In this document: positions 6,909 to 20,069 of the stretch, piece after piece
Layout of the letters: every line of letters starts with the position of its first letter
How positions within the stretch are numbered: position 1 is the first letter of the stretch
Source: an uncultured Porphyromonadaceae bacterium
Lineage (GTDB): Bacteria; Bacteroidota; Bacteroidia; Bacteroidales; Muribaculaceae
Direction of reading: 5' to 3'
NCBI GenBank assembly: GCA_947175215.1
Contig: CAMWLR010000009.1
Span: 1-54,577 of the forward strand
DNA length: 54,577 nt
Position numbers and translations under genes: made by a program
The notes under the pieces: model-generated
Seen by the model: only the letters and a program-made list of their open reading frames with translations
Databases searched by the model: none
What the model was told of the DNA's origin: nothing

Positions 6909-9071
6909 ATGTCAACAGCGCAATCTCCACACACTTTATGTTTTATGCGTAACCGGGCTATCTACATACTCAGCTATTTCAGCCTTACGGCTGTGGTTTT
7001 GCTGACGGTGCTTATCACACCGTCAACCGCAAAGGCCGCAACTGACCGTCAGCATATGCTTGACAGTATCAACAACGTCCTATCACAGATTGACACACCG
7101 GCCGACTCGATCATGCCGATGTTTAACATCTATGATCTGCTGACCGAGCCCGACCGTATCGCATACAGTTATAAGCTCATCGAGACAGCCGGCCACGCGG
7201 GCCGCTATGATATTGCCCTCGACGTCATACGCAATAACGCCAACAGCAATATGCGCGACATCGAGGTCATTGACCGCATGATCGACCTGACCGCCACATT
7301 CCCCGAGTCTGAGGATCGCAGCAACTCACAGACATTCCTTAGAATGGTACGTAACGCCTGCAAGGCACAAGGCGCTGTCACTGCCAAAGAGCGCGTTGAC
7401 ATCATCGAGAAACTCATGCGCGAGGCCAATGCAAACCCGCCCGAGACACTCAATGACCAGATCGTCCTGCTGCATGAGATCTGCATCTACCTCTCAGACA
7501 TAACCGAGGGCGACCTGCTGGTCGACTATCTGCATAAACTCGGCGAACTCATCGAGAAGATGCCCGAGACAAGCTATGCGCTAAAGAATATGTATTATGT
7601 CTGGGCATCGATAATATACACCAAGACCGGACAGACCGCTCTGGCCATACAGGCCTGCAATCACCTGCTCGACCAGATCGACCTGCTCGACCAGCGCAAC
7701 CAGCGACTCGGTCGCGTACACCGCGACTATGACGCCCACCGCTATATCGTCTATACCCGTCTGCTCGAAAACGCCGAGGGGCTCGACCCTGCCGACGAGC
7801 TGAAATATTATAATGAGGCCATACGCCTGACCGGTACATCATCGAGGGCGGCCAAGACATACGCATCAGCCCCTCTGCCCGACATTTACCACGCGATGTA
7901 TCATAAAAATTATCGCAAAGCATTTGAGCTCATCGACCGGTGCAAGGATAACCCCTATCTCAACAAGCGGCGGCTGCAGATAATGAAGATGTATATCGGC
8001 GCTGCCACAGCCATCGGCGAGAACCAGGCGCTGCTCAACTCATACCCAGAATACGCACGCCTGCTCGAGGAGGAACTCAATACTCGCGAGAAAGAACGCT
8101 ACCGCGAACTGCAGGTCATCTATGACGTCAACGAGATCAAGATCGACAACCTGCGTCTCAAAGAACGCGAGGAGAACGCCCGCAAACAGATGTGGCGCGC
8201 CATCACGATCGTTTGTGTCTGCATGCTCGTCGCCCTGGCGATATTCTCATTCTTCATGCTCAGACTCAGCCGTCGCAAGACCGCCATAGCCAACCGCCTC
8301 AAGATCACCAACCGCAACCTCATGAACGAGAGCCGGTTGTTACGCGAGGCGCGCGACCAGCTCAAGACAGCCCGCGATATGGCCGAGAAGGCCGACAAAC
8401 TCAAGACCGAGTTTATCAACAACATGAGCCATGAGGTGAAAGTACCCCTGCAGGCAATGCTGCAATACTCTCAGATGATACTTGAGAATGTCGATGACGA
8501 CCGAAAGAAATTCCTCTCGACATTCGCTGACCGCCTCGTAATCAATTGCGAACTGGTCAACACCATCGTCAACGACGTGCTACAACTCGCCGAGCTGCAC
8601 AACTCGACACTCAAAATCTCTGAGCAGCCATACGACCTGCTGCCGATATGCGAGGCCGCTGCCGATGCCCTGCGTCCACGCCTCCACCCCGGCGTGACAC
8701 TCGATGTCACCGCCCCTGCCGGCAACATCATCATACGCACCGACCGCTACCGCCTGCAGCAGATACTCACCAACCTGCTCTCAAACGCAGTCAAGTTTAC
8801 CGATGAGGGTACTGTCTCACTGTCCATGTCGACAACAGCCGACAACAGCCAGGTAATATTTACCGTCACCGATACCGGCATAGGCATTGATCCGTCCTAC
8901 GCCGAGACTATTTTTGAGCGATTCTCAAAACTCGATAACAATATCCCGGGCGCAGGCCTCGGACTGACTATCGCACGCCTGCTCGCACACCTGCTTGGCG
9001 GCGACCTTATCCTTGACACAGCCTATAGAGCCGGCGCACGGTTTATACTATCCCTCCCCAACCGCGTCTAA
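6909..9071 (+). CDS. Membrane sensor histidine kinase with periplasmic helical-repeat sensor
   Basis: The product has 720 residues from ATG 6909. ATG 6945 (MRNRAIYIL...) would give a more canonical signal peptide and is an equally good start. After the signal sequence comes an alpha-helical, probably TPR-like, sensor of about 370 residues. A membrane helix follows (WRAITIVCVCMLVALAI, about residue 430), then a coiled-coil linker and a kinase core. The H-box is NNMSHEVKVPLQA (His about 508). The N-box is NLLSNAVKF, G1 is DTGIGI and G2 is GAGLGLTIA. The H-box lacks the usual E-L-R/I-R-T-P form and has V-K-V-P-L, a known variant. No response regulator is adjacent. It ends 136 nt before the six-gene SPFH operon, which has its own promoter. 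A signalling link to that operon is possible but unproven. Confidence 0.9.
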   Translation: MSTAQSPHTLCFMRNRAIYILSYFSLTAVVLLTVLITPSTAKAATDRQHMLDSINNVLSQIDTPADSIMPMFNIYDLLTEPDRIAYSYKLIETAGHAGRYDIALDVIRNNANSNMRDIEVIDRMIDLTATFPESEDRSNSQTFLRMVRNACKAQGAVTAKERVDIIEKLMREANANPPETLNDQIVLLHEICIYLSDITEGDLLVDYLHKLGELIEKMPETSYALKNMYYVWASIIYTKTGQTALAIQACNHLLDQIDLLDQRNQRLGRVHRDYDAHRYIVYTRLLENAEGLDPADELKYYNEAIRLTGTSSRAAKTYASAPLPDIYHAMYHKNYRKAFELIDRCKDNPYLNKRRLQIMKMYIGAATAIGENQALLNSYPEYARLLEEELNTREKERYRELQVIYDVNEIKIDNLRLKEREENARKQMWRAITIVCVCMLVALAIFSFFMLRLSRRKTAIANRLKITNRNLMNESRLLREARDQLKTARDMAEKADKLKTEFINNMSHEVKVPLQAMLQYSQMILENVDDDRKKFLSTFADRLVINCELVNTIVNDVLQLAELHNSTLKISEQPYDLLPICEAAADALRPRLHPGVTLDVTAPAGNIIIRTDRYRLQQILTNLLSNAVKFTDEGTVSLSMSTTADNSQVIFTVTDTGIGIDPSYAETIFERFSKLDNNIPGAGLGLTIARLLAHLLGGDLILDTAYRAGARFILSLPNRV

Positions 9072-9126
9072 GCCCACTGCCATTTATAAAGACCGGAAGT
9101 TATTTTTAAGGTTTTTGAGGAATTAT

Positions 9127-9157
9127 TTTGAATTAAGGGATTTATGTGTTATCTTCG
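9127..9157 (+). promoter_or_regulatory. Promoter of the six-gene SPFH operon (-33 TTTG, -7 TATCTTCG)
   Basis: TTTG at 9127-9130 and TATCTTCG at 9150-9157 are spaced by 19 bp. The -7 box differs from TAnnTTTG at one position. Transcription would start near 9164, leaving a leader of about 44 nt before ATG 9208. Confidence 0.55.
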
Positions 9158-9207
9158 CAAATCCTAACGTCCATTCCCTTAATCCTTAAACCTGATCAAC
9201 CTTTAAT

Positions 9208-10530
9208 ATGGCAATCATAGACTGTCTCATCTGGCAACCCCAGGGCTCAGAGATCATATACGCATATCATTATCCCGAAAACAACCTGTCGACCTATACC
9301 CAGCTCATTGTGCAGGAGTCACAGGTGGCCCTTCTTTTCTCAAAAGGGCAGCTGATGGGTAAATTCGGGCCCGGTAAAGTCACCCTCGACACCGAGAACC
9401 TCCCCATTCTCAGACGCCTCTATGGATTCCCCTTCGGCGGCAAGAACCCCTTTACGGCCGAAGTATGGTTTGTCAACCTCGTCGAGACATTCAATATCCC
9501 CTGGCGTATCGGCCAACTAAGCATCCATGACCCTGACTATAACACCCAGCTGCCTCTCGAGGCAACCGGGCAATACGGGCTTAAGATTGTCGATCCTGAG
9601 AAGTTCCTTATCAAGGTTGTCGGCACGCGCTATCAATACACACAGCGCGATATGACCGACCAGTTTACCGGCGAATTTACCACCAAGGTAAAATCGGCGT
9701 TAGTGCAGTTCATGATTCAGAACCGTGTGGGTTTCAAGCAAATCTCAGCATATCTCGACAACCTGTCGAACATCGTATGCCAGCAGATGAATCTGTTTTG
9801 GAACGAACTCGGCATCGAGCTCACCCGATTCTACATCAGCAACATCGACATCGACACCTCGACCCCCGAAGGCATGAAAGTCAAGGAGGCGATTGCCGAG
9901 CAGAGCTCGATGTCTATCACCGGCCACACATGGCAGCAGGCCCAGATGTTTGACACCGCCAACAATGCCATCGGCCAATTTGGCGGCAACAGCAACGGCT
10001 CACTGTTAGGCGGACTCATGGCCATCAACATGATGGGTGGCATGGGCGGCTCAGGGATGGGTGGCGCAGCCATGGCTCCACAATACAACCAGCCCACATT
10101 CGGCCCCGGCGGCCAGGGAGGCAACTTCAACCAGGGTGGCATGGGCGGCAACTTTAACGGCGGAGTCCCCGGCGGCAACCCCTCGCAACCGGGCGGTCAG
10201 CCTCGCATGGTCTACTGCTCTAACTGCTCAAAACGATTCCCCAACAATATGGAGTACTGTCCCAACTGCGGACACAAATACCATCCCTGTCCCAATTGCG
10301 GCACTGATAACCCCGATGACGCGCGCCGTTGCGTCAGCTGCGGTACTGCACTGGCCGGCGTCACCCCTAAATGTCCCCATTGTCAGACCCCGATACCCCC
10401 GGGATGCAACTTCTGCCCCGGTTGCGGACAACCCGTCATCGCCGACACCTCTACCTGCAGCCGATGCGGCTCACGCATCCCCGACGGCGCCAAGTTCTGC
10501 CCCCGCTGCGGCAACAAACGCGGCGCATGA
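9208..10530 (+). CDS. SPFH (Band 7) domain protein with four C-terminal zinc ribbons, YdjI-like
   Basis: The product is 440 residues. Residues 1-250 form an SPFH/Band-7 domain of the YdjI or 'virion core protein' type, ending in the helical part around EGMKVKEAIAEQSSM. A Gly/Asn/Met-rich flexible linker follows (about 255-335). The tail has four C-x-x-C pairs of pairs: CSNC/CPNC, CPNC/CVSC, CPHC/CPGC and CSRC/CPRC, which is four tandem zinc ribbons. There is no signal peptide or membrane helix, so it is probably a cytoplasmic scaffold that associates with the membrane through oligomers. In Bacillus, YdjI works with a PspA homologue in a membrane-stress operon, which is the nearest functional clue. 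It is first in an operon of unknown proteins. The biochemical role is unknown. Confidence 0.85.
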   Translation: MAIIDCLIWQPQGSEIIYAYHYPENNLSTYTQLIVQESQVALLFSKGQLMGKFGPGKVTLDTENLPILRRLYGFPFGGKNPFTAEVWFVNLVETFNIPWRIGQLSIHDPDYNTQLPLEATGQYGLKIVDPEKFLIKVVGTRYQYTQRDMTDQFTGEFTTKVKSALVQFMIQNRVGFKQISAYLDNLSNIVCQQMNLFWNELGIELTRFYISNIDIDTSTPEGMKVKEAIAEQSSMSITGHTWQQAQMFDTANNAIGQFGGNSNGSLLGGLMAINMMGGMGGSGMGGAAMAPQYNQPTFGPGGQGGNFNQGGMGGNFNGGVPGGNPSQPGGQPRMVYCSNCSKRFPNNMEYCPNCGHKYHPCPNCGTDNPDDARRCVSCGTALAGVTPKCPHCQTPIPPGCNFCPGCGQPVIADTSTCSRCGSRIPDGAKFCPRCGNKRGA

Positions 10531-10594
10531 TCTCCGTCAAGTCTCACTACGCACCACAATCAACACATACCTCACGCATTAAACACACCCCCTG

Positions 10595-11314
10595 ATGAAA
10601 ACCAATATCACATCACTCATATTGGCCATCATAGGGCAGGCCCTCATCATCACCGGCTTTATGCTCTTCCGTGGCAACACCCCTGATAATATCCTGTGGC
10701 TCAACATTGTTGTCACCTCGATAGTCTTCTGGCTCATAGCCGCCAACTTTACATTTATACAGCCCGTCAGACTCGATGACCCCGCCGGCAAACATGCCGC
10801 CGGACTCGGCATCCGCTGGGGGGCCGTCATCTGGTATGCCATACTCGCCATCGGATTCATGGCCGTTGCCGGCTACCTCAACTATCAGACCGAGACAATC
10901 TCATTCAAATGGCAGCTGATGGTGCAGGCGATTCTACTCTTTGTTATGGTGGGTTCGCTCATCGCCTCACAGTCGGCGACAGACAAAGCCGGCCAAGCCT
11001 ACGCCACCGAGCAACAGACCATGCGTGGCAAGATGACCATCCGACAGGCACTCTCTGACCTCGCCCGCGTGGCCGAGGGAACGCCCGGCATCCCCGCCGA
11101 GATCACAGGGCAGATCCGTCACCTCTCTGACGAGACCCGGTATATCACCCCCTCTCAAAAAACCGAGGCTTTATATGCCGATGACCGCATCCTCGACCTG
11201 GCATCGCGTCTGCGCCCCGTCCTGAGCGCATACGACATGAACAGTCAGATGATCGCGTCACTGGTCAGCGCCCTCTCAAGTGAGCTCACCGAGCGCAAGC
11301 GCGTCCTCGGCTAA
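10595..11314 (+). CDS. Hypothetical four-helix membrane protein of the SPFH operon
   Basis: I do not recognise a family for this 239-residue protein. Four hydrophobic helices are visible, near residues 5-24, 33-55, 75-95 and 105-125. They are followed by a soluble alpha-helical tail of about 110 residues, predicted to be cytoplasmic, which contains MTIRQALSDLARVAE. The tail could contact the coiled-coil proteins encoded downstream. The start ATG 10595 lies 64 nt after the SPFH gene, and the following gene begins 40 nt after its stop. Position and orientation point to the same transcription unit. Confidence 0.75.
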   Translation: MKTNITSLILAIIGQALIITGFMLFRGNTPDNILWLNIVVTSIVFWLIAANFTFIQPVRLDDPAGKHAAGLGIRWGAVIWYAILAIGFMAVAGYLNYQTETISFKWQLMVQAILLFVMVGSLIASQSATDKAGQAYATEQQTMRGKMTIRQALSDLARVAEGTPGIPAEITGQIRHLSDETRYITPSQKTEALYADDRILDLASRLRPVLSAYDMNSQMIASLVSALSSELTERKRVLG

Positions 11315-11354
11315 CCCCCCTCTGACCTATTCTTTATCCCTTAAATCTTTCAAT

Positions 11355-13319
11355 ATGCAAGGAAAAATTTTCCCGGATTCTGCCAACATCTGGCAAGACC
11401 AAGCGAAAATCCTGTTTAATTACTACCGCCAGGCAGCCGAACGCGTTGTCGCCGAGGAGGAACGTATTGAGCAGGAAGTCGCATCCCTGCAGGAACAACG
11501 CGCCGAACTCGAGCGACAGATCGGCGGCCTATGGGTATGGTTTCTAACCATTATCTTATTCTTTGTCTATTTCATCAAAAAGAGTGGCATCGAGAAACAG
11601 ATCATGCAGATTGATGCTCAGATCGCCAACCTGCAGCAGCAATGGAATGGTATCTTCCGCGACTACCGCGTCAAACGCCTCGGCGTTGCCTATGTCCCCG
11701 TGGCCGAACAGGTGAAATATCAAGACAAGAGCTTTATCGTCGACTTTACCGGCGACGTACCTGAGCAAGAGATCTCGATGTCTGTGTCGCGTCAGAACGA
11801 ACTACTCGTCGACACCATCCACAATCTCGAACATCTCGCTAAAGAGGCCCCCGTGGTCGAGACATCAGACGAGGCCGAGACCGTGGCTACCGATGACTAT
11901 TCACTCTCTATACAGGAGATCAAAGAGAACGACTATCTCGGCGCGCTTGAGCGCTCGCTGCGCACCGTCGCTTTCTGTATGGATGACCTTGACACCACCT
12001 CGGTCACCCTCCCCGTCATACTCGACGGCAACCCCTATCTCGACCGCCTCGACGAATACTCGACATCCAATCCACCGGTCGAAGCACCCGTCATCGAGGT
12101 ATTCGACAGTCAGGTCTACTCGCCCGCCATCGAGAAATTCCGCGAAATCAATCAGCTCAAAAACACCCTCTCTGACGAGACCAGCCGCTTTGAGGATGTG
12201 CTCAGACAGCTGATGATGACTATCGCCAAATCTGTGCAGACCCTCTCGGCCCTCAAGGTCGCATCGGTCGACAAGGTCGTCGTCGACTCTAACAAGATAC
12301 TCTACCAGATACTCAAAGCCCCCTATAACCATTACTCACCCACCCTTGAGATGGAGGAGATCGAGCGCATCCGCAACGAGAAGTTTGACTACTCAGAGGA
12401 TGTGCAGGGTTACGAACCCTTCCAGCTCCGACCGTCATCGCGCGTCAGGTTTAACCCCCTGTCAGGGACATGGGTGGCCGAGGACGGCTCGCAGACCGTC
12501 GTGCCGTTTGGCGTACATCAGATGTACGAAGAGATCATCGCCCCGATGGTGCAGAACCTCATGGCCGAGAACCGCATCGAGCGTCTCAAGATCTACAACC
12601 ACATCCGCGACCAGAAACTCAGCTACCTCAACAAGTGGCATCAGGATACCGACGCATTTTATCGCGCCAACCGCAGCGAGAGCGCCGACATCATCAACCT
12701 CATGCAGGAATCACTGCGCGAATATGTCGCTGCATACAACACCCTCATCTCACTGCGCAAGACAGAGGAGGCGATGGAGACCTCGGGCGAAAACCTCGAC
12801 TCGACCGTCGTCGACGCCGTCGAGAATGCCGCCGAGAGCCTCGCTGCCTTCGAGATGCAGAGTCAGGAGTTCCAGAAGGTGCAGACCGACTTTGAGGATT
12901 ATATGGAACGCCTCAAGGATGACATCGACCTCAAGGCCGAGAAGTTTGGCCATGTGCAGTATTATGACGCCAAGCTCCGCGACGGATACTCTAACGAGGT
13001 GGCCGTGGCCGCATCTGAGATCAGCGATATGGATGATCGTCGCAAATCGCTCGCTTCGGTCAACCCCAAACTCGCCAAAGACTCAGAGCTTCCACCCGAG
13101 CCCTCTGTCTCAGACCTTACCTACGAGCACTTCTCGCTCAACCTCAACGCCATGGCCCGCGAGGCACTCGACAACCTCGACAAGTCTCCAGCCCCAAATA
13201 ATGATGGCGATACCCCCGATAACGGCACCCCGGTTGATGATGCCCCGGCTGATGCCACACCTGACACCGACACCCCCGCCGGTGATAACGATAACGGTAA
13301 TATCAACCCTGAATCCTGA
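11355..13319 (+). CDS. Hypothetical membrane-anchored coiled-coil protein of the SPFH operon
   Basis: The start is set at ATG 11355 (MQGKIFPDSANIWQ), giving 654 residues. The frame is open further upstream, but that part overlaps the preceding gene. Residues 25-57 form a charged coiled coil rich in Glu and Gln. A single hydrophobic helix follows (VWFLTIILFFVYFI, about 60-78), then a second coiled coil to about residue 110. The long remainder is acidic and mostly helical (FEMQSQEFQKVQTDFEDYM and similar). The last 45 residues are low-complexity Asp, Pro, Thr and Ala. No enzyme motif is visible. The coiled coil-membrane-coiled coil layout suggests a structural or scaffolding protein. It is followed by the two paralogous coiled-coil genes after 5 nt. 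Confidence 0.8.
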   Translation: MQGKIFPDSANIWQDQAKILFNYYRQAAERVVAEEERIEQEVASLQEQRAELERQIGGLWVWFLTIILFFVYFIKKSGIEKQIMQIDAQIANLQQQWNGIFRDYRVKRLGVAYVPVAEQVKYQDKSFIVDFTGDVPEQEISMSVSRQNELLVDTIHNLEHLAKEAPVVETSDEAETVATDDYSLSIQEIKENDYLGALERSLRTVAFCMDDLDTTSVTLPVILDGNPYLDRLDEYSTSNPPVEAPVIEVFDSQVYSPAIEKFREINQLKNTLSDETSRFEDVLRQLMMTIAKSVQTLSALKVASVDKVVVDSNKILYQILKAPYNHYSPTLEMEEIERIRNEKFDYSEDVQGYEPFQLRPSSRVRFNPLSGTWVAEDGSQTVVPFGVHQMYEEIIAPMVQNLMAENRIERLKIYNHIRDQKLSYLNKWHQDTDAFYRANRSESADIINLMQESLREYVAAYNTLISLRKTEEAMETSGENLDSTVVDAVENAAESLAAFEMQSQEFQKVQTDFEDYMERLKDDIDLKAEKFGHVQYYDAKLRDGYSNEVAVAASEISDMDDRRKSLASVNPKLAKDSELPPEPSVSDLTYEHFSLNLNAMAREALDNLDKSPAPNNDGDTPDNGTPVDDAPADATPDTDTPAGDNDNGNINPES

Positions 13320-13324
13320 CCGCC

Positions 13325-14272
13325 ATGTCATCGACTATCACCTGTCATGTAGACACCTCTCCGATGGCCGAGTCGATAGGCTCGGTATCAAATCACGTCA
13401 ACGGCACCACCGCCGCCGTCGTCGCCATGAAAGCCGCCGTGGTCAAGGCCGAGAGTGACGCCGCCAACCATGTGTGCGACAAGGTCAACCGGGGCTTCTA
13501 TACCCTTATCCGCTCTCAGATCTCTCAGAAGATTGCCTCGCTCAAAAGTGAGGTCGACTCTCACCTGATGCGCCTCAACCAGCAGCGTAAGCAGCTCACC
13601 GCCATACGCGAGCGTATGCAGCGCGACTATAACATGATCTCGGCGCGCTATCTCAAGACTTTCACCACCATAAACAAGAATCTCGAGCAGCGCGTTGCCG
13701 AGCTCGACAGGCCCGTGATGGATCTCGCCGGCACTGAGGCCGGTAAGGTCACCAACCGTGCCGCCCGTTTGACCGCCGATATCCCGTTGGGCCAGATCGA
13801 GAGTGTACGCACCTCGCAGATGATCGGCTCATCGCGTCTCAAATTCACCGCACTAAAGGCTATCGAGACAATAGAGAGATTTATCGACGGCAGCAACCGT
13901 CTTGAGGAGGTAACCGACCGCATACTCTTGCGCCGGCGCATGAATCCCGAGACCACAAGCGTGTCACGCTCAATACCGGTGGTCATCACCGAGACCAACT
14001 ACGATCCCACCGATATGTCTCAGACCCAGACATATATCTCGCGCATGGAACTCTCCGCCGAGGCCACGCGCAGCATCGAGGGCGCCATCGACTCGGTCAT
14101 CCGCTCTCAGCAGCTACCCTGGGTATATCCTCAAGCCGGCATACCGGCCGAACTCGTCAGCGAGTTCCGCAGCCTCGTCGCCGCCTCGGGTATCGACCCG
14201 CGCCGTCAGCGTATGATGGTGGCAATGTTTGAGTCACACCCCTTCCAAACCTTAGAGATGACCGCCCGATGA
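13325..14272 (+). CDS. Hypothetical coiled-coil protein, first of a tandem paralogous pair
   Basis: The 315-residue protein has no signal peptide or membrane segment and no family that I recognise. Residues 55-140 hold a helical core (RGFYTLIRSQISQKIASL, MQRDYNMISARYLKTF, ELDRPVMDL). This core is clearly repeated in the next gene, so the two arose by duplication. The C-terminal third is different and ends in a region with PWVYPQAG. The stop overlaps the next start in ATGA, which indicates translational coupling and matched amounts of the two proteins. A partner role in a filament or complex is inferred from the operon. Confidence 0.8.
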   Translation: MSSTITCHVDTSPMAESIGSVSNHVNGTTAAVVAMKAAVVKAESDAANHVCDKVNRGFYTLIRSQISQKIASLKSEVDSHLMRLNQQRKQLTAIRERMQRDYNMISARYLKTFTTINKNLEQRVAELDRPVMDLAGTEAGKVTNRAARLTADIPLGQIESVRTSQMIGSSRLKFTALKAIETIERFIDGSNRLEEVTDRILLRRRMNPETTSVSRSIPVVITETNYDPTDMSQTQTYISRMELSAEATRSIEGAIDSVIRSQQLPWVYPQAGIPAELVSEFRSLVAASGIDPRRQRMMVAMFESHPFQTLEMTAR

Positions 14273-15306
14273 GTTACACCCGCAGACTTCCCACCCAATA
14301 TATCACCGTACACTACAGCCGCAGTGTCTCCTACCCCGCCTCACAGCACGGTGGCACATTGCAGGTAAGCGGCAGTGTCAGTGAGCCGGTCGATGTCTTC
14401 GTACATGTCGATACCGACCTCTTTGACCACGAGATCGACAAGTGTAATGACCGTGTCAACCTCCTCACCGGGTCGGTAGTGGCCACCGAGGGAGCACAGG
14501 TCGAGTCTATCCACGCCAATTCGCGCAAGGTCGGCGACACCATCATCCGCGGTTTCTTCAAGACCGTCCGCTCTGATATCTCACAGCAGATCGCTGCCTT
14601 GCAGAGCCGCATTGATGCCCTGCTCATCCACCTGCACGAACTGTCGGCCAGATGTATCGGCAAACGTGATCAGATGACCGTCGACTATAACCGCATCTCG
14701 TCACGCTACCTCAAGATATTCGGCGAACTCGACCGCGAACTCGAGAACCGCATACATGCTGTCGACGCTCCCGTCTTTGACGTCACCCGCGCAGCCGATG
14801 CCACCGCGTCAGCCACCACCGCCGAGAGTCTCGTTGCCACCACAGCTTTGGGGGCTGCCGAGAGTTCGCGTCTGCACGCCCGCATCTCTGCAGCCATGGC
14901 CAAACGCCGCGCATCCGAGGCGCTGTCAAAGGCACAACGGTTTCTCAACGTCCAGTATTCGGTCGACAGCCTGCTGGCCGACTGTCTCCGCCCCGGCGGA
15001 GAGGGCGCGATGCTCTACACCCCGGTCTGCCTATCCGAGACAACTGAGGCCCCCGGCCAATTCTCGCGCCGCCTCGACTCCTCACCCCTGCTCGACAACG
15101 TCTCACGTCAGGCCCTCCTCGATGGTATGGATGACTGTCCCTGGGGAGGCACCGTGTCCCCCTCTGATGCACAGGCCATCGCCGGATACTTCAACGACGA
15201 GGTCGCCCGCATGAGCAGTCAGGCCGTAACCCCCTCTCAGAGACGTGTCGCCGCCATGACTTCGCGCCTCTTTAACCTCTCATCAACAGCCTCACCCGGC
15301 ATCTGA
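14269..15306 (+). CDS. Hypothetical coiled-coil protein, second of the tandem paralogous pair
   Basis: The 345-residue product is paralogous to its upstream neighbour. Its core reads RGFFKTVRSDISQQIAAL, MTVDYNRISSRYLKIF and AVDAPVFDV, aligned nearly without gaps to the first copy. It has an extra N-terminal extension of about 40 residues that looks beta-strand-rich (YITVHYSRSVSYPA) and a Ser/Ala-rich middle. No enzyme motif, signal peptide or membrane helix is seen. The 4-nt overlap with the upstream gene suggests coupled translation. Divergence outside the core suggests that the copies have separate roles in the same assembly. Confidence 0.8.
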   Translation: MSYTRRLPTQYITVHYSRSVSYPASQHGGTLQVSGSVSEPVDVFVHVDTDLFDHEIDKCNDRVNLLTGSVVATEGAQVESIHANSRKVGDTIIRGFFKTVRSDISQQIAALQSRIDALLIHLHELSARCIGKRDQMTVDYNRISSRYLKIFGELDRELENRIHAVDAPVFDVTRAADATASATTAESLVATTALGAAESSRLHARISAAMAKRRASEALSKAQRFLNVQYSVDSLLADCLRPGGEGAMLYTPVCLSETTEAPGQFSRRLDSSPLLDNVSRQALLDGMDDCPWGGTVSPSDAQAIAGYFNDEVARMSSQAVTPSQRRVAAMTSRLFNLSSTASPGI

Positions 15307-15347
15307 TCAACCTATTTACCAACCACCGACCATATACATTATAATAT

Positions 15348-16322
15348 ATGAGTGACAAAAGAGAATTAAAGGAAGTACGCTTTGACACCTCAGAGATACG
15401 CCTGCGCGATAACCTCGTGCGCGGGGCGATACTTCCTCAGAAGATAGCCGAACTACCCCGCAACATCATCATCGAGGGGAACACCACCATCGAGGGCGCC
15501 GTCTATGGCCACCGCATCGAGATACGCAACGGTGACGTCGAGATACAGGGCGCCGTATTCGCCCAGAACGAGCTCTACATCTCGGGTGACGTCAACGCCC
15601 CCGTGACATTCAGAAAGAGTGTAGGGTCTGCCAACTCGGTCGTATCGCGCGGAGCATCATGCCGCCCGACATTCGCCTCAGACATCAACGCCCGCCAGGT
15701 ATCGTTGCGCAACGCATTTGTCGCCGGCAGCATATATGCCGACGAGATCGACATTGAGAACTGCATTGTCATCGGCGGAGTCTTCGCCACCACCGAGGCC
15801 CGCATCAGCAACTCGATCGTCGGCACATTCAACACCCCGGGCGTACAGCTTGAGGGCACCGTGCAGCTCCTTCTCCCCTCAGCATTCACCATCGACACCC
15901 CGCGCACCAATCCCGACACACGCCTCTTTAACCTCTCGCTGGCCGATCTCGGGGCACTCTACCGCGGCATGACCGAAGATCCCCAATCAGGCCGTATCGC
16001 CATGAACCTCCAGACAGACGAAATCAAGTCAAACCTCACCGATCACGAGAAACAGCGTACCCTGCGCGCATTCACCGTCATCGGCAAAGTGCTCGCCGCC
16101 GATCTCATCGACACCGACCGTTTCCAGAATCACTTCTTGCTGACAGCCGCCTCACTCGGTCCGCAGATGCTCAAGACATACGACCTCGGTCCGAACGCCG
16201 ACGGCCGTCCGACCCCCCTCGACCGCGACCATATCCGCGACTTCTTCTTCAAACTCCTCGACGGCCGCATCGAACCCCGCCATATCGACGCCACATTCTC
16301 CCTCTCAAACCTCGCCAACTGA
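15348..16322 (+). CDS. Bactofilin-like polymer-forming beta-helix protein, last gene of the SPFH operon
   Basis: This is a 324-residue soluble protein. Residues 30-185 show short repeating strands with alternating Ile/Val and Gly or Asn turns: NIIIEGNTTIEGAVYG, EIRNGDVEIQGAVFAQN, ELYISGDVNAPV, EIDIENCIVIGGVFA. This is the pattern of the right-handed beta-helix of bactofilins (polymer-forming cytoskeletal proteins). Unlike classical short bactofilins, it carries a helical C-terminal domain of about 130 residues with HEKQRTLRAFTVIGKVL and the HIRDFFFKLLDGR region. It lies 41 nt after the paralogous pair and is followed by a terminator at 16368. A filament or platform role at the membrane is inferred from the fold only. 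Confidence 0.75.
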   Translation: MSDKRELKEVRFDTSEIRLRDNLVRGAILPQKIAELPRNIIIEGNTTIEGAVYGHRIEIRNGDVEIQGAVFAQNELYISGDVNAPVTFRKSVGSANSVVSRGASCRPTFASDINARQVSLRNAFVAGSIYADEIDIENCIVIGGVFATTEARISNSIVGTFNTPGVQLEGTVQLLLPSAFTIDTPRTNPDTRLFNLSLADLGALYRGMTEDPQSGRIAMNLQTDEIKSNLTDHEKQRTLRAFTVIGKVLAADLIDTDRFQNHFLLTAASLGPQMLKTYDLGPNADGRPTPLDRDHIRDFFFKLLDGRIEPRHIDATFSLSNLAN

Positions 16323-16367
16323 GCCATGAATACGGCTCATTAACCCGGCATTTCCCCCACTCCTTAT

Positions 16368-16409
16368 ACCGCCGGCGGTCTCCCACGACTGCCGGCGGTT
16401 TTCATTTTC
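16368..16409 (+). terminator. Rho-independent-like terminator of the SPFH operon
   Basis: ACCGCCGGC (16368-16376) pairs with GCCGGCGGT (16391-16399) across a 14-nt loop, followed by TTTTCATTTT. Confidence 0.75.
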
Positions 16410-16571
16410 CCCCACCCTATTTCACCTCATAACTCATACCTATCCTTACCTCATACTTCATAACTAATATCTTATACTTATCCTCTCTCCTTGAAATGTT
16501 AAATCTTAAGCCACCTTACTTTCTTTAAGTATTTTTAACTATTCGGGGGGGGTAAATAGCGCCCTTTTATC

Positions 16572-16579
16572 TAACTTTG
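16572..16579 (+). promoter_or_regulatory. -7 promoter element (TAACTTTG) for the modular secreted protein
   Basis: It matches TAnnTTTG exactly. The expected -33 position falls on or next to a G8 homopolymer (16545-16552), so no TTTG box is present there. Predicted transcription start is near 16587. Confidence 0.6.
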
Positions 16580-16733
16580 CGCCGGATTATAGGCAAACAC
16601 GACCAAAATCTCATACTTTGCCACCTAAACTGCGACCAAAATCAACGGCCTCCTTACAATCCGCAACCACTCCTCTCTCTAACCAATCAATTTCGCTAAA
16701 ACTTCTCACAAAATAATCCAATCTCTTAACCAC

Positions 16734-19700
16734 ATGAAAAAAATTCTACTACTGCTTGTGGGTGTGCTAACTATGGCGCTCGCCAATGCGACCACCTACA
16801 CCACCACATCAGGGTCAGCTTCAATTTCAAGCAACCATTTGACGTGGTCTGAAAACGATGTAACCTGGAATCTTGCATATACATGGCTTAGCGGCTCAGG
16901 TTATTTCGCCACAGAAAATGATGGGTTGCACATCGGATCAAATAGCAATGGTATCGGCACAATAAAAATGTCAACCGACGATATCCCCGGGAAAATCAAA
17001 TCTGTCACTATTAACTGTAAGAGTAATGGCTCGACCTCGCTCGCAGTAACTGTTGGCAACACTTCCTTTACTTGCAATGGGAACGAATCAGTTACTATTA
17101 CAAACTCATCATCTTCGTATGCCTTTATAGGGGAAAGTACCGGCGAAATAATAATTGACTTCAACAATTCAACCAACAAGAAAAATATCTATATCAAAGA
17201 AGTCGTTGTTGAGTACGAAGAAGTGACTGAGAACCCCACCTCTGTCGGCGACATCAAGCTGTTTAACGGTGATACTGAAATTGACCCCACTGAGGGCGTT
17301 AATATCCCTGAGGGCACCGTGCTTACCATCTCGTCTGACAATGCCACCTCAATCATGGTTGGTGAAACATCTCTCACTGTTACTGACAACACCGCCACAT
17401 GGTCACCCACTCTCTGCAAAAATAAAGAAGTAACCATCACCGCTTCGGCAGACGGCCTCGAATCAAAGACCCTGACATTCAATCTCACCGTAACCAAGGC
17501 CGTCGGTGACATAATCGTTAAATATGGCGATGTAGAGATCTCAGCCGGTGATGAAATATCAGTGCCCGTAGGTACACTGTTTACCATCCATTCTGACGAT
17601 GCCACCAACATTAACATCCTCTCAGCAGGTGATAATGCATTGTCAGCAGATGGCCCTGATGCCACTTGGCAGCCCAACATCTGCGACAACACCACCATTA
17701 CCATCATCGCCTGTGATAACAACGGACTCCTCACCCAAAAGGAATTCACCTTTAACCTCACCGTCTACGACCCCTCACAGCTTTCTGCCACCTGGATTAT
17801 CACGGGTGTTGACGGCACCTCTAATGGTAATGATGCCTGCGATCTTCCTCTAACACTCGGTCAGGGCAGTGCAGCCGGTAACTGGCAGGCAGTCCACAGC
17901 TCTGCTTACGCCACAACAACCTCGGGCCATGCCCAGTTTGGTTCAAAGAATTATCCGTTTGACGGCGGTACGCTGACATTGACTAACTCTGATATCCCTG
18001 CGAATGCGAGGATACTCTCCGTATCAATGACAGGCTACAACTCTACAACAACACATACCACATGGGCTGTAACGGTTAATGGCAAAGAGGCAACCGAAAA
18101 AATCGTTTTCGGCAATAATACTTTCGCGGAGCATGAGGTTTCGATTGCCAATGAAAATCTTATCGGCAACCAAATCGTCCTGACCTGCGGCGGTGGTAGC
18201 GGCATAAATCAGACATATCTCTCCGGTATCACTATAAAATACACTCTTGAAGAGATAACCCTCGGAGAGGTTACCGCTACTGTTAACGGTGATGAGCTTA
18301 CTTCTCCCCTCGTCCTCGAGGAGGGTGAAACAGTCACATTCTCAGCGGCCTATGCTACCTCTTTTGAGGTCACTGTCGGCGACCGAGATCCCGTTGAACT
18401 CACTGCTCTTGACGGGGTTGCAGAATGGACACCCGACGCATGCACCGCTCAAACCGTATCGGTCATCGCCAAGCGCGTCGTAGAGGGTGAGGAGACACAG
18501 ACCTCTGCACCTCTGACATTCACCCTGACAGTCAACAAGAAAATCATAATTATCGATGACATTGTTGCTACATATCTCACTAATAATGTTATTAATGATG
18601 GCGACACTATCATAGTTGATGAGAACACAACGCTGACATTTAAGGCTGTAAATGCCACCAAGATCGAAATTGCCGGCACTAATACATACGCTGACGATGA
18701 TGAACTGATATGGACTCCGGATGTCTGCGAACCCATGAACATAACAGTGGTCGCCTCTCGTGAAGGCTCAGAAAGTAAGACCCTGACTTTTAACCTTACC
18801 GTCAAGAAGTGTACCCGCTTTACCGCTACGTGGAATGTTATCGGCGTTGACGGACAGTCAAACGGCGGTCAAAAATGCGATCTTCCCCTGCTGTTGAGTG
18901 AGGATAGCGCTGACGGCATCTGGACAGCCGAACATGAGACTGCTTACGCCACCACCAATTCAGGCTGCGCTCAGCTTGGCTCAGGCACACAGGCTAACAC
19001 CTTTGACGGGGGTACGCTGACTCTCACCGGTTCGGCAATCCCGCCTTATGCCACAATCCTCTCTGTCAGCATGACAGGCTATTGCAAGAACAGCAATCCT
19101 CATGCCGTCTGGACAGTCACCGTTAATAATACTGATGCCGATGAGACAATTGCTTTCAATACCGGCTCAGCCGATCATACCGCAAATGTAAACATCACAG
19201 GTAATAAGATCGTCCTGACCTGCCACTCATCAAGCACAAGCAATATGGCGCAGGTTCACCTCTCGGGCATCTCTATTACTTACAGTCTCCCCGAGGAGAC
19301 TCCCGAGCCCGCAGGCGATATTATCTGCGAGCATCCTGTTCACTTCCAGCTCGAAGAGTATACCACCGATAATATGATTTCGGTTATGGCCGGCACCAAG
19401 CTGACATTCATCTCTGAGAATGCCGATCATATCTACATCTCATCTGACGCCGACGGCCTGACTCTCCCCGAGACTGTTGGCGGCGACACGATCGAGTGGG
19501 AAGCCCCCGATATGGAGGAGGGATTCTATGACGAGATCACCGTCACCGCTATCCGCGACAATAATACCGACCCCGTGGTCAAGGTTTATGAGCTCTATGT
19601 AGAGAATGTCACCCACTCTGTCCCCACATATGTGGCCGATGAAGAGAATATGGCTGTCACTCTCACTTGCGAGTCCGGCGCTTTGGCCTATATGATCGTC

Positions 19701-20069
19701 GAGGTTCCCACCATTGACGAGGGTGATATCGAAGATCCGTTTGGCGCGCCCCGCCGCGTCGAGCTCACTGACACCTGGACACATCCCGAAGGTGTTTATC
19801 CCAAGACTCATACCATCGACTACTCTGACCTTGACAAAGACGTAATGGTTTATGCCAAGTCAGTAGTACCCGCCGGCGAGTCAGAGCCGATCAGCTTTAT
19901 GGTCAATGGTGACGGTGTTGTTTCCGGCATCGCAAACGTAAGCCTCGACAACGACAACCGTGGCGAAGCCATCTACTATGATCTGCAGGGCCGTCGCACA
20001 GATGCCGCCCGCGCCGGCCTCTATATCCGCACCGTCGGAGGCAAAGCCGAGAAAGTAGTCATCCGCTGA
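16734..20069 (+). CDS. Large modular secreted protein with Ig-like repeats and C-terminal T9SS-type sorting domain
   Basis: The 1111-residue protein begins with a clear signal peptide (MKKILLLLVGVLTMALANA). Two module types alternate. Type A, about 85 residues, contains GTxLTISSDNAT and W-x-P-x-x-C and ends in KTLTFNLTV. It occurs at about 170-252, 255-345, 508-600, 602-690 and, more divergent, 855-955. Type B, about 160 residues, contains ITGVDGxSNG, CDLPL, FDGGTLTLT and ILSVSMTGY, occurring at about 346-508 and 692-853 with a divergent copy at 20-165. The C-terminus has IYYDLQGRR and AGLYIRTVGG, typical of Bacteroidetes sorting domains. The function is unknown, and a binding or adhesive surface role is plausible. 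Its base composition is less GC-rich than the neighbours. No catalytic motif is seen. Confidence 0.85.
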   Translation: MKKILLLLVGVLTMALANATTYTTTSGSASISSNHLTWSENDVTWNLAYTWLSGSGYFATENDGLHIGSNSNGIGTIKMSTDDIPGKIKSVTINCKSNGSTSLAVTVGNTSFTCNGNESVTITNSSSSYAFIGESTGEIIIDFNNSTNKKNIYIKEVVVEYEEVTENPTSVGDIKLFNGDTEIDPTEGVNIPEGTVLTISSDNATSIMVGETSLTVTDNTATWSPTLCKNKEVTITASADGLESKTLTFNLTVTKAVGDIIVKYGDVEISAGDEISVPVGTLFTIHSDDATNINILSAGDNALSADGPDATWQPNICDNTTITIIACDNNGLLTQKEFTFNLTVYDPSQLSATWIITGVDGTSNGNDACDLPLTLGQGSAAGNWQAVHSSAYATTTSGHAQFGSKNYPFDGGTLTLTNSDIPANARILSVSMTGYNSTTTHTTWAVTVNGKEATEKIVFGNNTFAEHEVSIANENLIGNQIVLTCGGGSGINQTYLSGITIKYTLEEITLGEVTATVNGDELTSPLVLEEGETVTFSAAYATSFEVTVGDRDPVELTALDGVAEWTPDACTAQTVSVIAKRVVEGEETQTSAPLTFTLTVNKKIIIIDDIVATYLTNNVINDGDTIIVDENTTLTFKAVNATKIEIAGTNTYADDDELIWTPDVCEPMNITVVASREGSESKTLTFNLTVKKCTRFTATWNVIGVDGQSNGGQKCDLPLLLSEDSADGIWTAEHETAYATTNSGCAQLGSGTQANTFDGGTLTLTGSAIPPYATILSVSMTGYCKNSNPHAVWTVTVNNTDADETIAFNTGSADHTANVNITGNKIVLTCHSSSTSNMAQVHLSGISITYSLPEETPEPAGDIICEHPVHFQLEEYTTDNMISVMAGTKLTFISENADHIYISSDADGLTLPETVGGDTIEWEAPDMEEGFYDEITVTAIRDNNTDPVVKVYELYVENVTHSVPTYVADEENMAVTLTCESGALAYMIVEVPTIDEGDIEDPFGAPRRVELTDTWTHPEGVYPKTHTIDYSDLDKDVMVYAKSVVPAGESEPISFMVNGDGVVSGIANVSLDNDNRGEAIYYDLQGRRTDAARAGLYIRTVGGKAEKVVIR

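What the first reader, a model, noticed from the sequence alone, without database searches (positions are those of the whole stretch)
9208..16322. Six-gene SPFH/zinc-ribbon to bactofilin operon: a candidate undescribed membrane scaffold or stress system
Seen: one promoter (9127-9157), six same-strand genes with gaps of 64, 40, 5, -4 and 41 nt, and a terminator at 16368. The products are an SPFH protein with four zinc ribbons, a four-helix membrane protein, a coiled coil-membrane-coiled coil protein, two paralogous coiled-coil proteins and a bactofilin-like beta-helix protein. Known: SPFH proteins form membrane rings, bactofilins polymerise, and Bacillus YdjI (SPFH with zinc ribbon) works with a PspA homologue in membrane stress. 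Inference: these six build one membrane-associated assembly, with the coiled-coil proteins taking a PspA-like role. Four of the six have no family that I recognise.
Basis: partly seen in the sequence, partly recalled or inferred. Interest (0 to 1): 0.72.

Follow-up and report, generated by a model that had tools for sequence, protein, structure and literature searches.

The report
Six-gene membrane scaffold cassette, Bacteroidales
Some bacteria of the Bacteroidales carry a block of six genes that is nearly always found complete and in the same order, seems to move between species as one piece, and probably builds a protein scaffold on the inner membrane; four of its six proteins belong to no recognised family.

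Summary
In detail: six co-directional genes (9208-16322) with a Bacteroidota-type promoter, the stated gaps and a strong terminator. The unit is real. All six genes lie in the same order in 39 of 46 related loci; 6 others are cut by contig ends and 1 lacks the SPFH gene. In 257 genomes of the order, searches with C, D (with its paralogue E), F and close A orthologues find the same 7 genomes; F adds one 40-residue piece elsewhere. No flanking family recurs in more than 4 of 51 loci, and three near relatives have a CitMHS transporter gene where the window has the cassette. It is rare (7 of 257) and patchy (3 of 14 in the genus). A is a PF13421 SPFH/zinc-ribbon protein, F is bactofilin-like below Pfam's cut-off, and B-E match no informative family. 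Best explanation: a transferable SPFH-centred scaffold on the cytoplasmic face of the inner membrane, working like Bacillus YdjGHI. The PspA-like role of D/E has no sequence support. Its function (envelope protection, phage defence or morphogenesis) is inferred, not shown.

The parts
9127..9157 (+). Bacteroidota-type promoter (TTTG-N19-TATCTTCG) upstream of gene A
   Evidence: sequence; (4 matches in the window, 0.28 expected); looser motif upstream of A in 17 of 43 related loci
9208..10530 (+). Gene A: SPFH (Band_7_1) protein without TM segment, Gly-rich linker, four C-terminal zinc ribbons, 440 aa
   Evidence: PF13421 3.7e-35, DZR 3.6e-25; no TM segment; 12 of 16 zinc-ribbon Cys invariant and the other 4 at 90% or more in 27 sequences
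10216..10521 (+). Four CxxC-CxxC zinc ribbons of A (residues about 337-438)
   Evidence: translation
10595..11314 (+). Gene B: four-TM protein with a cytoplasmic helical tail, termini predicted inside; fastest-evolving member
   Evidence: no Pfam family over its cut-off
11355..13319 (+). Gene C: single-TM protein (TM about residues 56-74), large conserved body predicted cytoplasmic, variable tail; most conserved member
   Evidence: only an 18-residue coiled-coil match over a Pfam cut-off (PF08946, 24.7 against 24 bits); no NCBIfam match over cut-off and no PDB match
13325..14272 (+). Gene D: soluble, partly amphipathic-helical protein, paralogue of E
14269..15306 (+). Gene E: paralogue of D with an N-terminal extension of about 40 aa
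15348..16322 (+). Gene F: bactofilin-like region plus conserved C-terminal part
   Evidence: PF04519 sub-threshold; best PDB profile match Bactofilin A 2n3d, E 0.043
16368..16399 (+). Intrinsic terminator, 13-pair stem with T-rich tail
16521..16598 (.). Stretch where DNA similarity to cassette-free relatives resumes (the right border of the insertion or replacement lies between 16323 and here)

Best explanation
A six-gene, horizontally shared cassette builds one SPFH-centred scaffold on the cytoplasmic face of the inner membrane and protects or organises the envelope under stress. B (four TM helices, cytoplasmic tail) and C (one TM helix, about 550-residue cytoplasmic body) anchor it. A, which has no TM helix of its own, assembles through its SPFH domain into a ring or cage at those anchors and uses its zinc ribbons to bind partners. 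The paralogues D and E form a hetero-oligomeric helical layer. F adds a nucleotide-independent beta-helix polymer that spreads or caps the assembly. SHOWN: the unit, its order, promoter motif, co-occurrence, different occupants of one site in close relatives, domain identity of A, D/E paralogy. INFERRED: topology (positive-inside rule), assembly, polymerisation by F, transfer as a block, and the envelope-stress role (by analogy with Bacillus YdjI, which needs membrane proteins YdjG/H to reach the membrane).
For: All six genes in order in 39 of 46 loci. The same 7 of 257 genomes for C, D/E, F and the close A orthologue. A promoter motif upstream of A in 17 of 43 loci. Gene distances correlate for all 15 gene pairs (Spearman 0.65-0.91; C-F 0.91, C-D 0.89; no species-tree control). 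A is in PF13421, which also rings in Bacillus subtilis (that this is YdjI is recalled), and has no TM helix, while B and C supply them; this is the same division of labour as YdjI with YdjG/H (PMC8581546, abstract and section 7). One relative's C protein carries its own zinc-ribbon tail (1 of 43 checked), which links C with zinc ribbons as in A. No nuclease, NTPase or protease family over a cut-off in the six proteins.
Against: PspA, the partner in the Bacillus system, is missing from 10 of 10 carriers, although it is rare anyway (3 of 46 non-carriers over the cut-off). F matches bactofilin only below Pfam's cut-off, so polymerisation is not established. Rarity and patchiness (7 of 257; 3 of 14 in the genus) fit a niche or conflict system better than a general stress response. 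B evolves fast (31% mean identity), which could mean a contact with a variable partner such as a phage.
Confidence: 0.45

Rival explanations
1. An anti-phage (or anti-plasmid) system acting at the inner membrane: the scaffold senses or blocks DNA entry, assembly or lysis, and is kept by patchy horizontal transfer.
For: Complete-or-absent, rare, patchy distribution; Capnocytophaga nested among Bacteroidales in the cassette tree; different occupants of one chromosomal site; fast-evolving B; single flank ORFs match defence models such as a restriction enzyme, DpdF and Csx1/Csm6; a methylase-like ORF upstream of B in L049 and an exonuclease gene adjoining F in L031, L032 and L036.
Against: No convincing PADLOC-DB match for any of the six (best E 0.0013); no effector domain found; window neighbours and flank families that could be read include many metabolic or housekeeping genes, though only 25 of 149 Pfam and 25 of 83 PADLOC families of the flank scans were listed and no background rate was measured; C absent from plasmid, phage and viral collections and D from viral contigs.
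Confidence: 0.2
2. A morphogenetic or compartment-forming apparatus: the bactofilin-like F and helical D/E build a local cytoskeletal patch, appendage base or membrane domain, with A as its rim.
For: F is bactofilin-like; D/E are partly helical by periodicity; no enzyme family recognised in the unit; bactofilins are known in morphogenesis (PMC12448750, start of abstract in the listing).
Against: No neighbour family of any kind recurs in more than 4 of 51 loci; patchy within a genus, which shape genes rarely are (general knowledge).
Confidence: 0.2
3. A membrane-protein quality-control or assembly platform: the SPFH ring and zinc ribbons hold substrates for a chromosomally encoded protease or chaperone.
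For: SPFH proteins of other families work with FtsH (PMC2636767 passages); four zinc ribbons and a zinc-ribbon tail on one C suggest client or partner binding; a ClpA/ClpB-type AAA+ chaperone gene lies downstream of F on the same strand in three loci (L040, L044, L045), which may be shared ancestry.
Against: No protease, NfeD or ATPase family over a cut-off inside the unit, and the Clp neighbour is limited to those three of the loci compared.
Confidence: 0.1
4. Six genes that are merely neighbours, without common function.
For: The only two recognised domain types (SPFH/zinc ribbon, bactofilin-like) are general.
Against: 39 of 46 loci with fixed order, same genome sets, unconserved flanks.
Confidence: 0.02

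Closest known systems
Bacillus subtilis pspA(ydjF)-ydjG-ydjH-ydjI operon
   Same: SPFH protein with zinc ribbon and no membrane helix, encoded with membrane proteins and a coiled-coil protein; in Bacillus the membrane proteins are needed to bring YdjI and PspA to the membrane (PMC8581546 abstract and section 7; domain make-up from PMC11237479 passages).
   Different: No PspA (PF04012) or TPM-domain match here; five partner proteins instead of three; four zinc ribbons; a bactofilin-like protein; the two proteins that could stand in for PspA show no sequence relation to it.
Band-7/PspA operons catalogued in the PSP comparative-genomics paper (PMC11237479, passages only)
   Same: Band-7 protein as platform for membrane complexes with coiled-coil partners.
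   Different: The contexts in those passages carry PspA, AAA+ ATPase, CesT/Tir, flotillin or YuaF-type proteins; none was recognised in the six; 'bactofilin' has 0 occurrences in that paper's main text.
Bactofilins (PF04519)
   Same: F has a weak similarity to the bactofilin repeat region, seen in 14 of 26 family members at E<=0.01.
   Different: Below Pfam's cut-off for the window protein; longer, with a conserved C-terminal part; no hydrophobic N-terminal membrane-targeting peptide visible in the consensus (read by eye).
SPFH-GYF mini-operon in genome G251 (L111:6707-10085)
   Same: PF13421 protein (210 bits to the A profile) next to a B-like membrane protein (E 9e-6).
   Different: GYF domain instead of zinc ribbons; a zinc-ribbon/TPR protein and a 240-aa protein follow; no C, D, E or F in the stretch or genome; B similarity weak by hhalign (37.5%).

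Membership tests
PF13421 Band_7_1 (YdjI-type SPFH) for protein A | Match over the curated cut-off along most of the domain | tested here: met
   121.9 bits against 24, profile 2-210 of 211
PF13421 Band_7_1 (YdjI-type SPFH) for protein A | C-terminal zinc ribbons and no TM helix, as in YdjI | tested here: met
   four ribbons, Cys conserved in 27 sequences; no hydrophobic segment
PSP system (PspA/ESCRT-III) | A PspA_IM30 (PF04012) protein in the operon | tested here: not met
   no PF04012 match for any of the six; no PspA/Vipp1 chain in PDB profile searches of C, D, E
PSP system (PspA/ESCRT-III) | PspA present elsewhere in carrier genomes | tested here: not met
   0 of 10 carriers; but only 3 of 46 non-carriers over the cut-off, so PspA is rare in this group anyway
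PSP system (PspA/ESCRT-III) | Induction by envelope stress | not testable with these tools
   needs expression data
Bactofilin (PF04519) for protein F | Match over the curated cut-off | tested here: not met
   17.8 bits against 27.9 for the window protein; 14 of 26 members match at E<=0.01, best 8.2e-6
Bactofilin (PF04519) for protein F | Similarity to solved bactofilin | tested here: inconclusive
   family profile against Bactofilin A 2n3d, E 0.043
Bactofilin (PF04519) for protein F | Nucleotide-free polymerisation | not testable with these tools
   needs purified protein
Known anti-phage defence systems (PADLOC-DB 2.0.0) | Any of A-F matches a model convincingly | tested here: not met
   best E 0.0013 (PbeC, a long helical stretch of D)
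One operon | Conserved order, short gaps, promoter upstream, terminator downstream | tested here: met
   (terminator looked at in the window only)
One operon | Single transcript | not testable with these tools
   needs RNA mapping

The most novel reading that the evidence does not exclude
A new class of transferable, nucleotide-independent membrane-remodelling machine of bacteria: an SPFH ring, a two-part membrane anchor (B, C), a paired helical coat (D/E) and a bactofilin-like polymer (F). It would do without PspA/ESCRT-III or any ATPase of its own, and could serve as an envelope immune system against phage or membrane-attacking competitors.
Probability: 0.2. Interest if true: 0.85.

Novelty: new variant of a known kind. 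Interest (0 to 1): 0.6.

Why it matters
SPFH proteins and bactofilins are each widespread scaffold builders, but in the listings of six paper searches (open-access library, lists capped) I saw no paper that joins them in one genetic unit. A block that is nearly always complete or absent points to an assembly in which every part is needed. It gives four unassigned protein families a shared, testable context. It also offers a natural experiment: close relatives with and without the cassette at the same chromosomal site. If the role is envelope protection or phage defence, it would be a second, PspA-free way to build an SPFH-based membrane guard.

Tried and rejected
PspA-like role for D/E: looked for in Pfam, PDB profiles and genomes; no support. 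PspA is also rare in non-carriers (3 of 46), so its absence from carriers says little by itself. Homology of C with E: hhalign probability 0.6% (D's profile was not compared with C). Homology of C with a 937-aa partner of another SPFH gene (L113): 0.1%. B-like protein in the SPFH-GYF mini-operon: weak only. PDB relatives of B, C, D, E: none convincing. One Pfam match over its cut-off outside A: PF08946, an osmosensory coiled coil, 18 residues of C at 24.7 against 24 bits; I treat it as a generic coiled coil. Phage, plasmid or viral origin: D and C gave no match; the other four were not searched there. Recent foreign origin by composition: cassette genes have GC 0.549-0.606 and GC3 0.707-0.750 against 0.542-0.575 and 0.669-0.746 for six other window genes, so the acquisition is not recent, or came from a donor of like composition. 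PADLOC and Pfam scans covered 127 flank ORFs of a list of 146 (two per side, 110-900 aa). 19 were dropped before the scan: 9 overlapped cassette genes, and 10 others, mostly long, were left out to stay within the residue limit; the listings show 25 of 83 PADLOC and 25 of 149 Pfam families, and no background rate was measured. The ORF-based table missed cassette genes because my ORF filter preferred longer spurious frames; it was replaced by the six-frame search. The tree used 27 of 47 cassettes (window and 26 named), quick method; family names are submitters' titles, and L026, titled Clostridiales, groups with Muribaculaceae rows and was not checked further. Over all families the labels are somewhat clustered (12 changes against 14.3 in shuffles, as low in 3 of 200), so vertical descent within groups exists as well as scatter.
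Full report
OBSERVATION. The promoter 9127-9157 is a good Bacteroidota-type match (the consensus is recalled); the pattern TTTG-N19-TAnnTTnG occurs 4 times in the window against 0.28 expected. The terminator at 16368-16399 is the strongest of seven candidates, although seven is no more than chance for the region. A carries an SPFH domain (PF13421, 3.7e-35) and four zinc ribbons. B, D and E have no Pfam match over a cut-off; C has one, an 18-residue coiled-coil stretch (PF08946, 24.7 against 24 bits), which says little. No NCBIfam match of B-E is over its cut-off, and no PADLOC match of the six is convincing. F reaches bactofilin only below the curated cut-off; 14 of 26 aligned members of the F family match bactofilin at E<=0.01, and the family profile's best PDB match is Bactofilin A at E 0.043. 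D and E are paralogues.

THE UNIT. A scan of one genome per species with protein C returned 46 named loci, a lower bound because exact peptide patterns are needed. A six-frame profile search of these 46 finds all six genes in the order A-B-C-D-E-F in 39. In two of the 39 some genes are split (L031, L050), and L023 has an extra piece of F. Six loci are cut by contig ends (L009, L015, L022, L037, L043, L051), and one, L049, lacks A although its contig goes on for 6 kb. These loci were found through C, so I tested co-occurrence independently: among 257 genomes of the order, C occurs in 7, the window's own included; D with its paralogue E in the same 7; F in the same 7, plus a 40-residue piece in an eighth. 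The A profile scores above 670 bits in the same 7 and at most 210 bits elsewhere, where it picks up other SPFH or zinc-ribbon proteins (86 of 257 genomes with any match). B was not searched genome-wide by itself. Pairwise gene distances correlate for every pair of the six (Spearman 0.65-0.91, 26 cassettes, no species-tree control).

A TRANSFERABLE CASSETTE. C is present in 5 of 61 relatives, in 3 of 14 genomes of the genus and in 1 of 296 of a phylum-wide sample, that one being the window's own; some genomes are incomplete. Flanking genes are not conserved: 469 flank ORFs of 51 loci share no family in more than four loci, and neighbours lie on either strand (upstream 24 plus and 15 minus, downstream 15 plus and 20 minus, by my simple ORF caller). 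In the genus-mate G004, which lacks the cassette, the order is P-type ATPase, histidine kinase, a 614-aa CitMHS transporter gene on the other strand, an 811-aa ORF, two tRNA-Val genes, purB; the 811-aa ORF shares only 50 C-terminal residues with the window's gene at 16734, but the DNA before it is similar. G013 and G008 also have the transporter (about 90% identical to G004's) between the kinase and a homologue of the gene at 16734; the window sequence has no match to it. The window has the cassette between the kinase and the gene at 16734, and DNA similarity to the three cassette-free relatives resumes at about 16521-16534. The two other carriers in the genus have it in stretches (about 16 kb each, one with almost nothing upstream of A) that hold none of these window neighbours. 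In the tree of five concatenated proteins (27 cassettes, quick method), Capnocytophaga (Flavobacteriales) lies inside a Bacteroidales group (support 98-100), and Muribaculaceae rows are scattered (6 changes against 6.2 in shuffles). Over all families together, though, labels are more clustered than chance (12 changes against 14.3, as low in 3 of 200). This fits transfer on top of some vertical descent, with the caution that family names are submitters' titles. Composition is similar to that of neighbouring genes, so the acquisition is not recent, or came from a similar donor. No relative of C was found among 72,556 plasmid and 50,697 phage records or in viral contigs, and none of D in viral contigs.

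ANATOMY. Family-averaged hydropathy gives no membrane segment in A, D, E or F, four helices in B (six windows merged) and one (residues 56-74) in C. Charge flanks put both termini of B and the large C-terminal body of C in the cytoplasm (positive-inside rule, inference). Mean pairwise identity is C 66 (core columns), A 63, F 63, D 49, E 44 and B 31 per cent, so C is the conserved core of the novel part and B the fast-evolving part. In one relative (G048) the C protein carries three extra zinc ribbons in its tail; 0 of 42 other C proteins has such a tail.

MECHANISM. I read this as an SPFH-centred scaffold on the inner face of the inner membrane: B and C anchor it, A assembles on them, D/E form a paired helical layer, and F adds a beta-helix polymer. 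The nearest experimentally studied case is Bacillus YdjI, a soluble SPFH protein that needs YdjG and YdjH to reach the membrane, where it works with PspA (PMC8581546, abstract and section 7). The division of labour is the same, but PspA is missing: no PF04012 match in the operon, and none in 10 of 10 carrier genomes. With only 3 of 46 non-carriers over the cut-off, that absence is what one would expect anyway. Envelope protection is the role I think most likely (0.45 for the whole statement). Phage defence (0.2) is favoured by patchiness, likely transfer and a fast-evolving membrane protein. It is disfavoured by the absence of a recognised effector domain and by many metabolic or housekeeping genes among the flanks that could be read; a few flanks match defence models but I measured no background. 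A morphogenetic or compartment role (0.2) and a quality-control platform (0.1; a Clp-type chaperone gene follows F in three loci, L040, L044, L045) remain open.

NOVELTY. A belongs to a known family and the general idea of an SPFH membrane platform is known. The six-gene combination, the PspA-free design and families B, C, D/E and the F variant were not seen in the listings of six paper searches, which cover open-access papers only and were capped (20 of 25 papers, 15 of 781); no paper listed or 46 holds both 'bactofilin' and 'SPFH'. Of PMC11237479, PMC10936438, PMC2636767 and PMC7159879 I saw only passages; of PMC12448750 only the start of the abstract in a listing. I rate it a new variant of a known kind, with a fair chance of being more.

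Noticed in passing
window 9071-16734; L134:9634-11478, L135:3571-5406, L136:4682-6517: The site after the histidine kinase holds a CitMHS-type transporter gene in three cassette-free genus-mates and the six-gene cassette in the window: alternative occupants of one site.
   Followed up: partly
L031:14834-15751, L032:14831-15748, L036:9380-10294: An exonuclease gene starts within a few bases of the end of gene F in three loci, like a seventh operon gene (PF00929 tested for L032 and L036; L031 by similarity); L032 and L036 are related cassettes in the tree.
   Followed up: partly
L040:15368-17443, and just after F in L044 and L045: A ClpA/ClpB-type AAA+ chaperone gene follows F on the same strand at 54-175 nt in three loci; named from the sequence start and Pfam families, not scanned one by one.
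   Followed up: no
L049:1-6582: The only locus with room that lacks gene A; a DNA-methylase-like ORF lies upstream of B instead.
   Followed up: partly
L110:8820-11231: The C protein of genome G048 carries three zinc ribbons (six CxxC) in its tail; 0 of 42 other C proteins checked has two or more CxxC there.
   Followed up: partly
L111:6707-10085: A related mini-operon: SPFH-GYF protein, B-like membrane protein, zinc-ribbon/TPR protein and an unknown 240-aa protein.
   Followed up: partly
L023:8115-8800: A gene for a zinc-ribbon protein with hydrophobic segments directly after F, followed by a piece matching the C-terminal part of F, perhaps a decayed tandem duplication.
   Followed up: no
window 16734-20069: A 1111-aa protein with a signal-like start and no Pfam family at E<=0.001; several overlapping partial matches to homologues in genus-mates suggest internal repeats.
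   Followed up: no
G058:C113:20943-21062: An isolated 40-residue match to the middle of F (positions 184-223) in a genome without the cassette: a remnant or a shared small motif.
   Followed up: no
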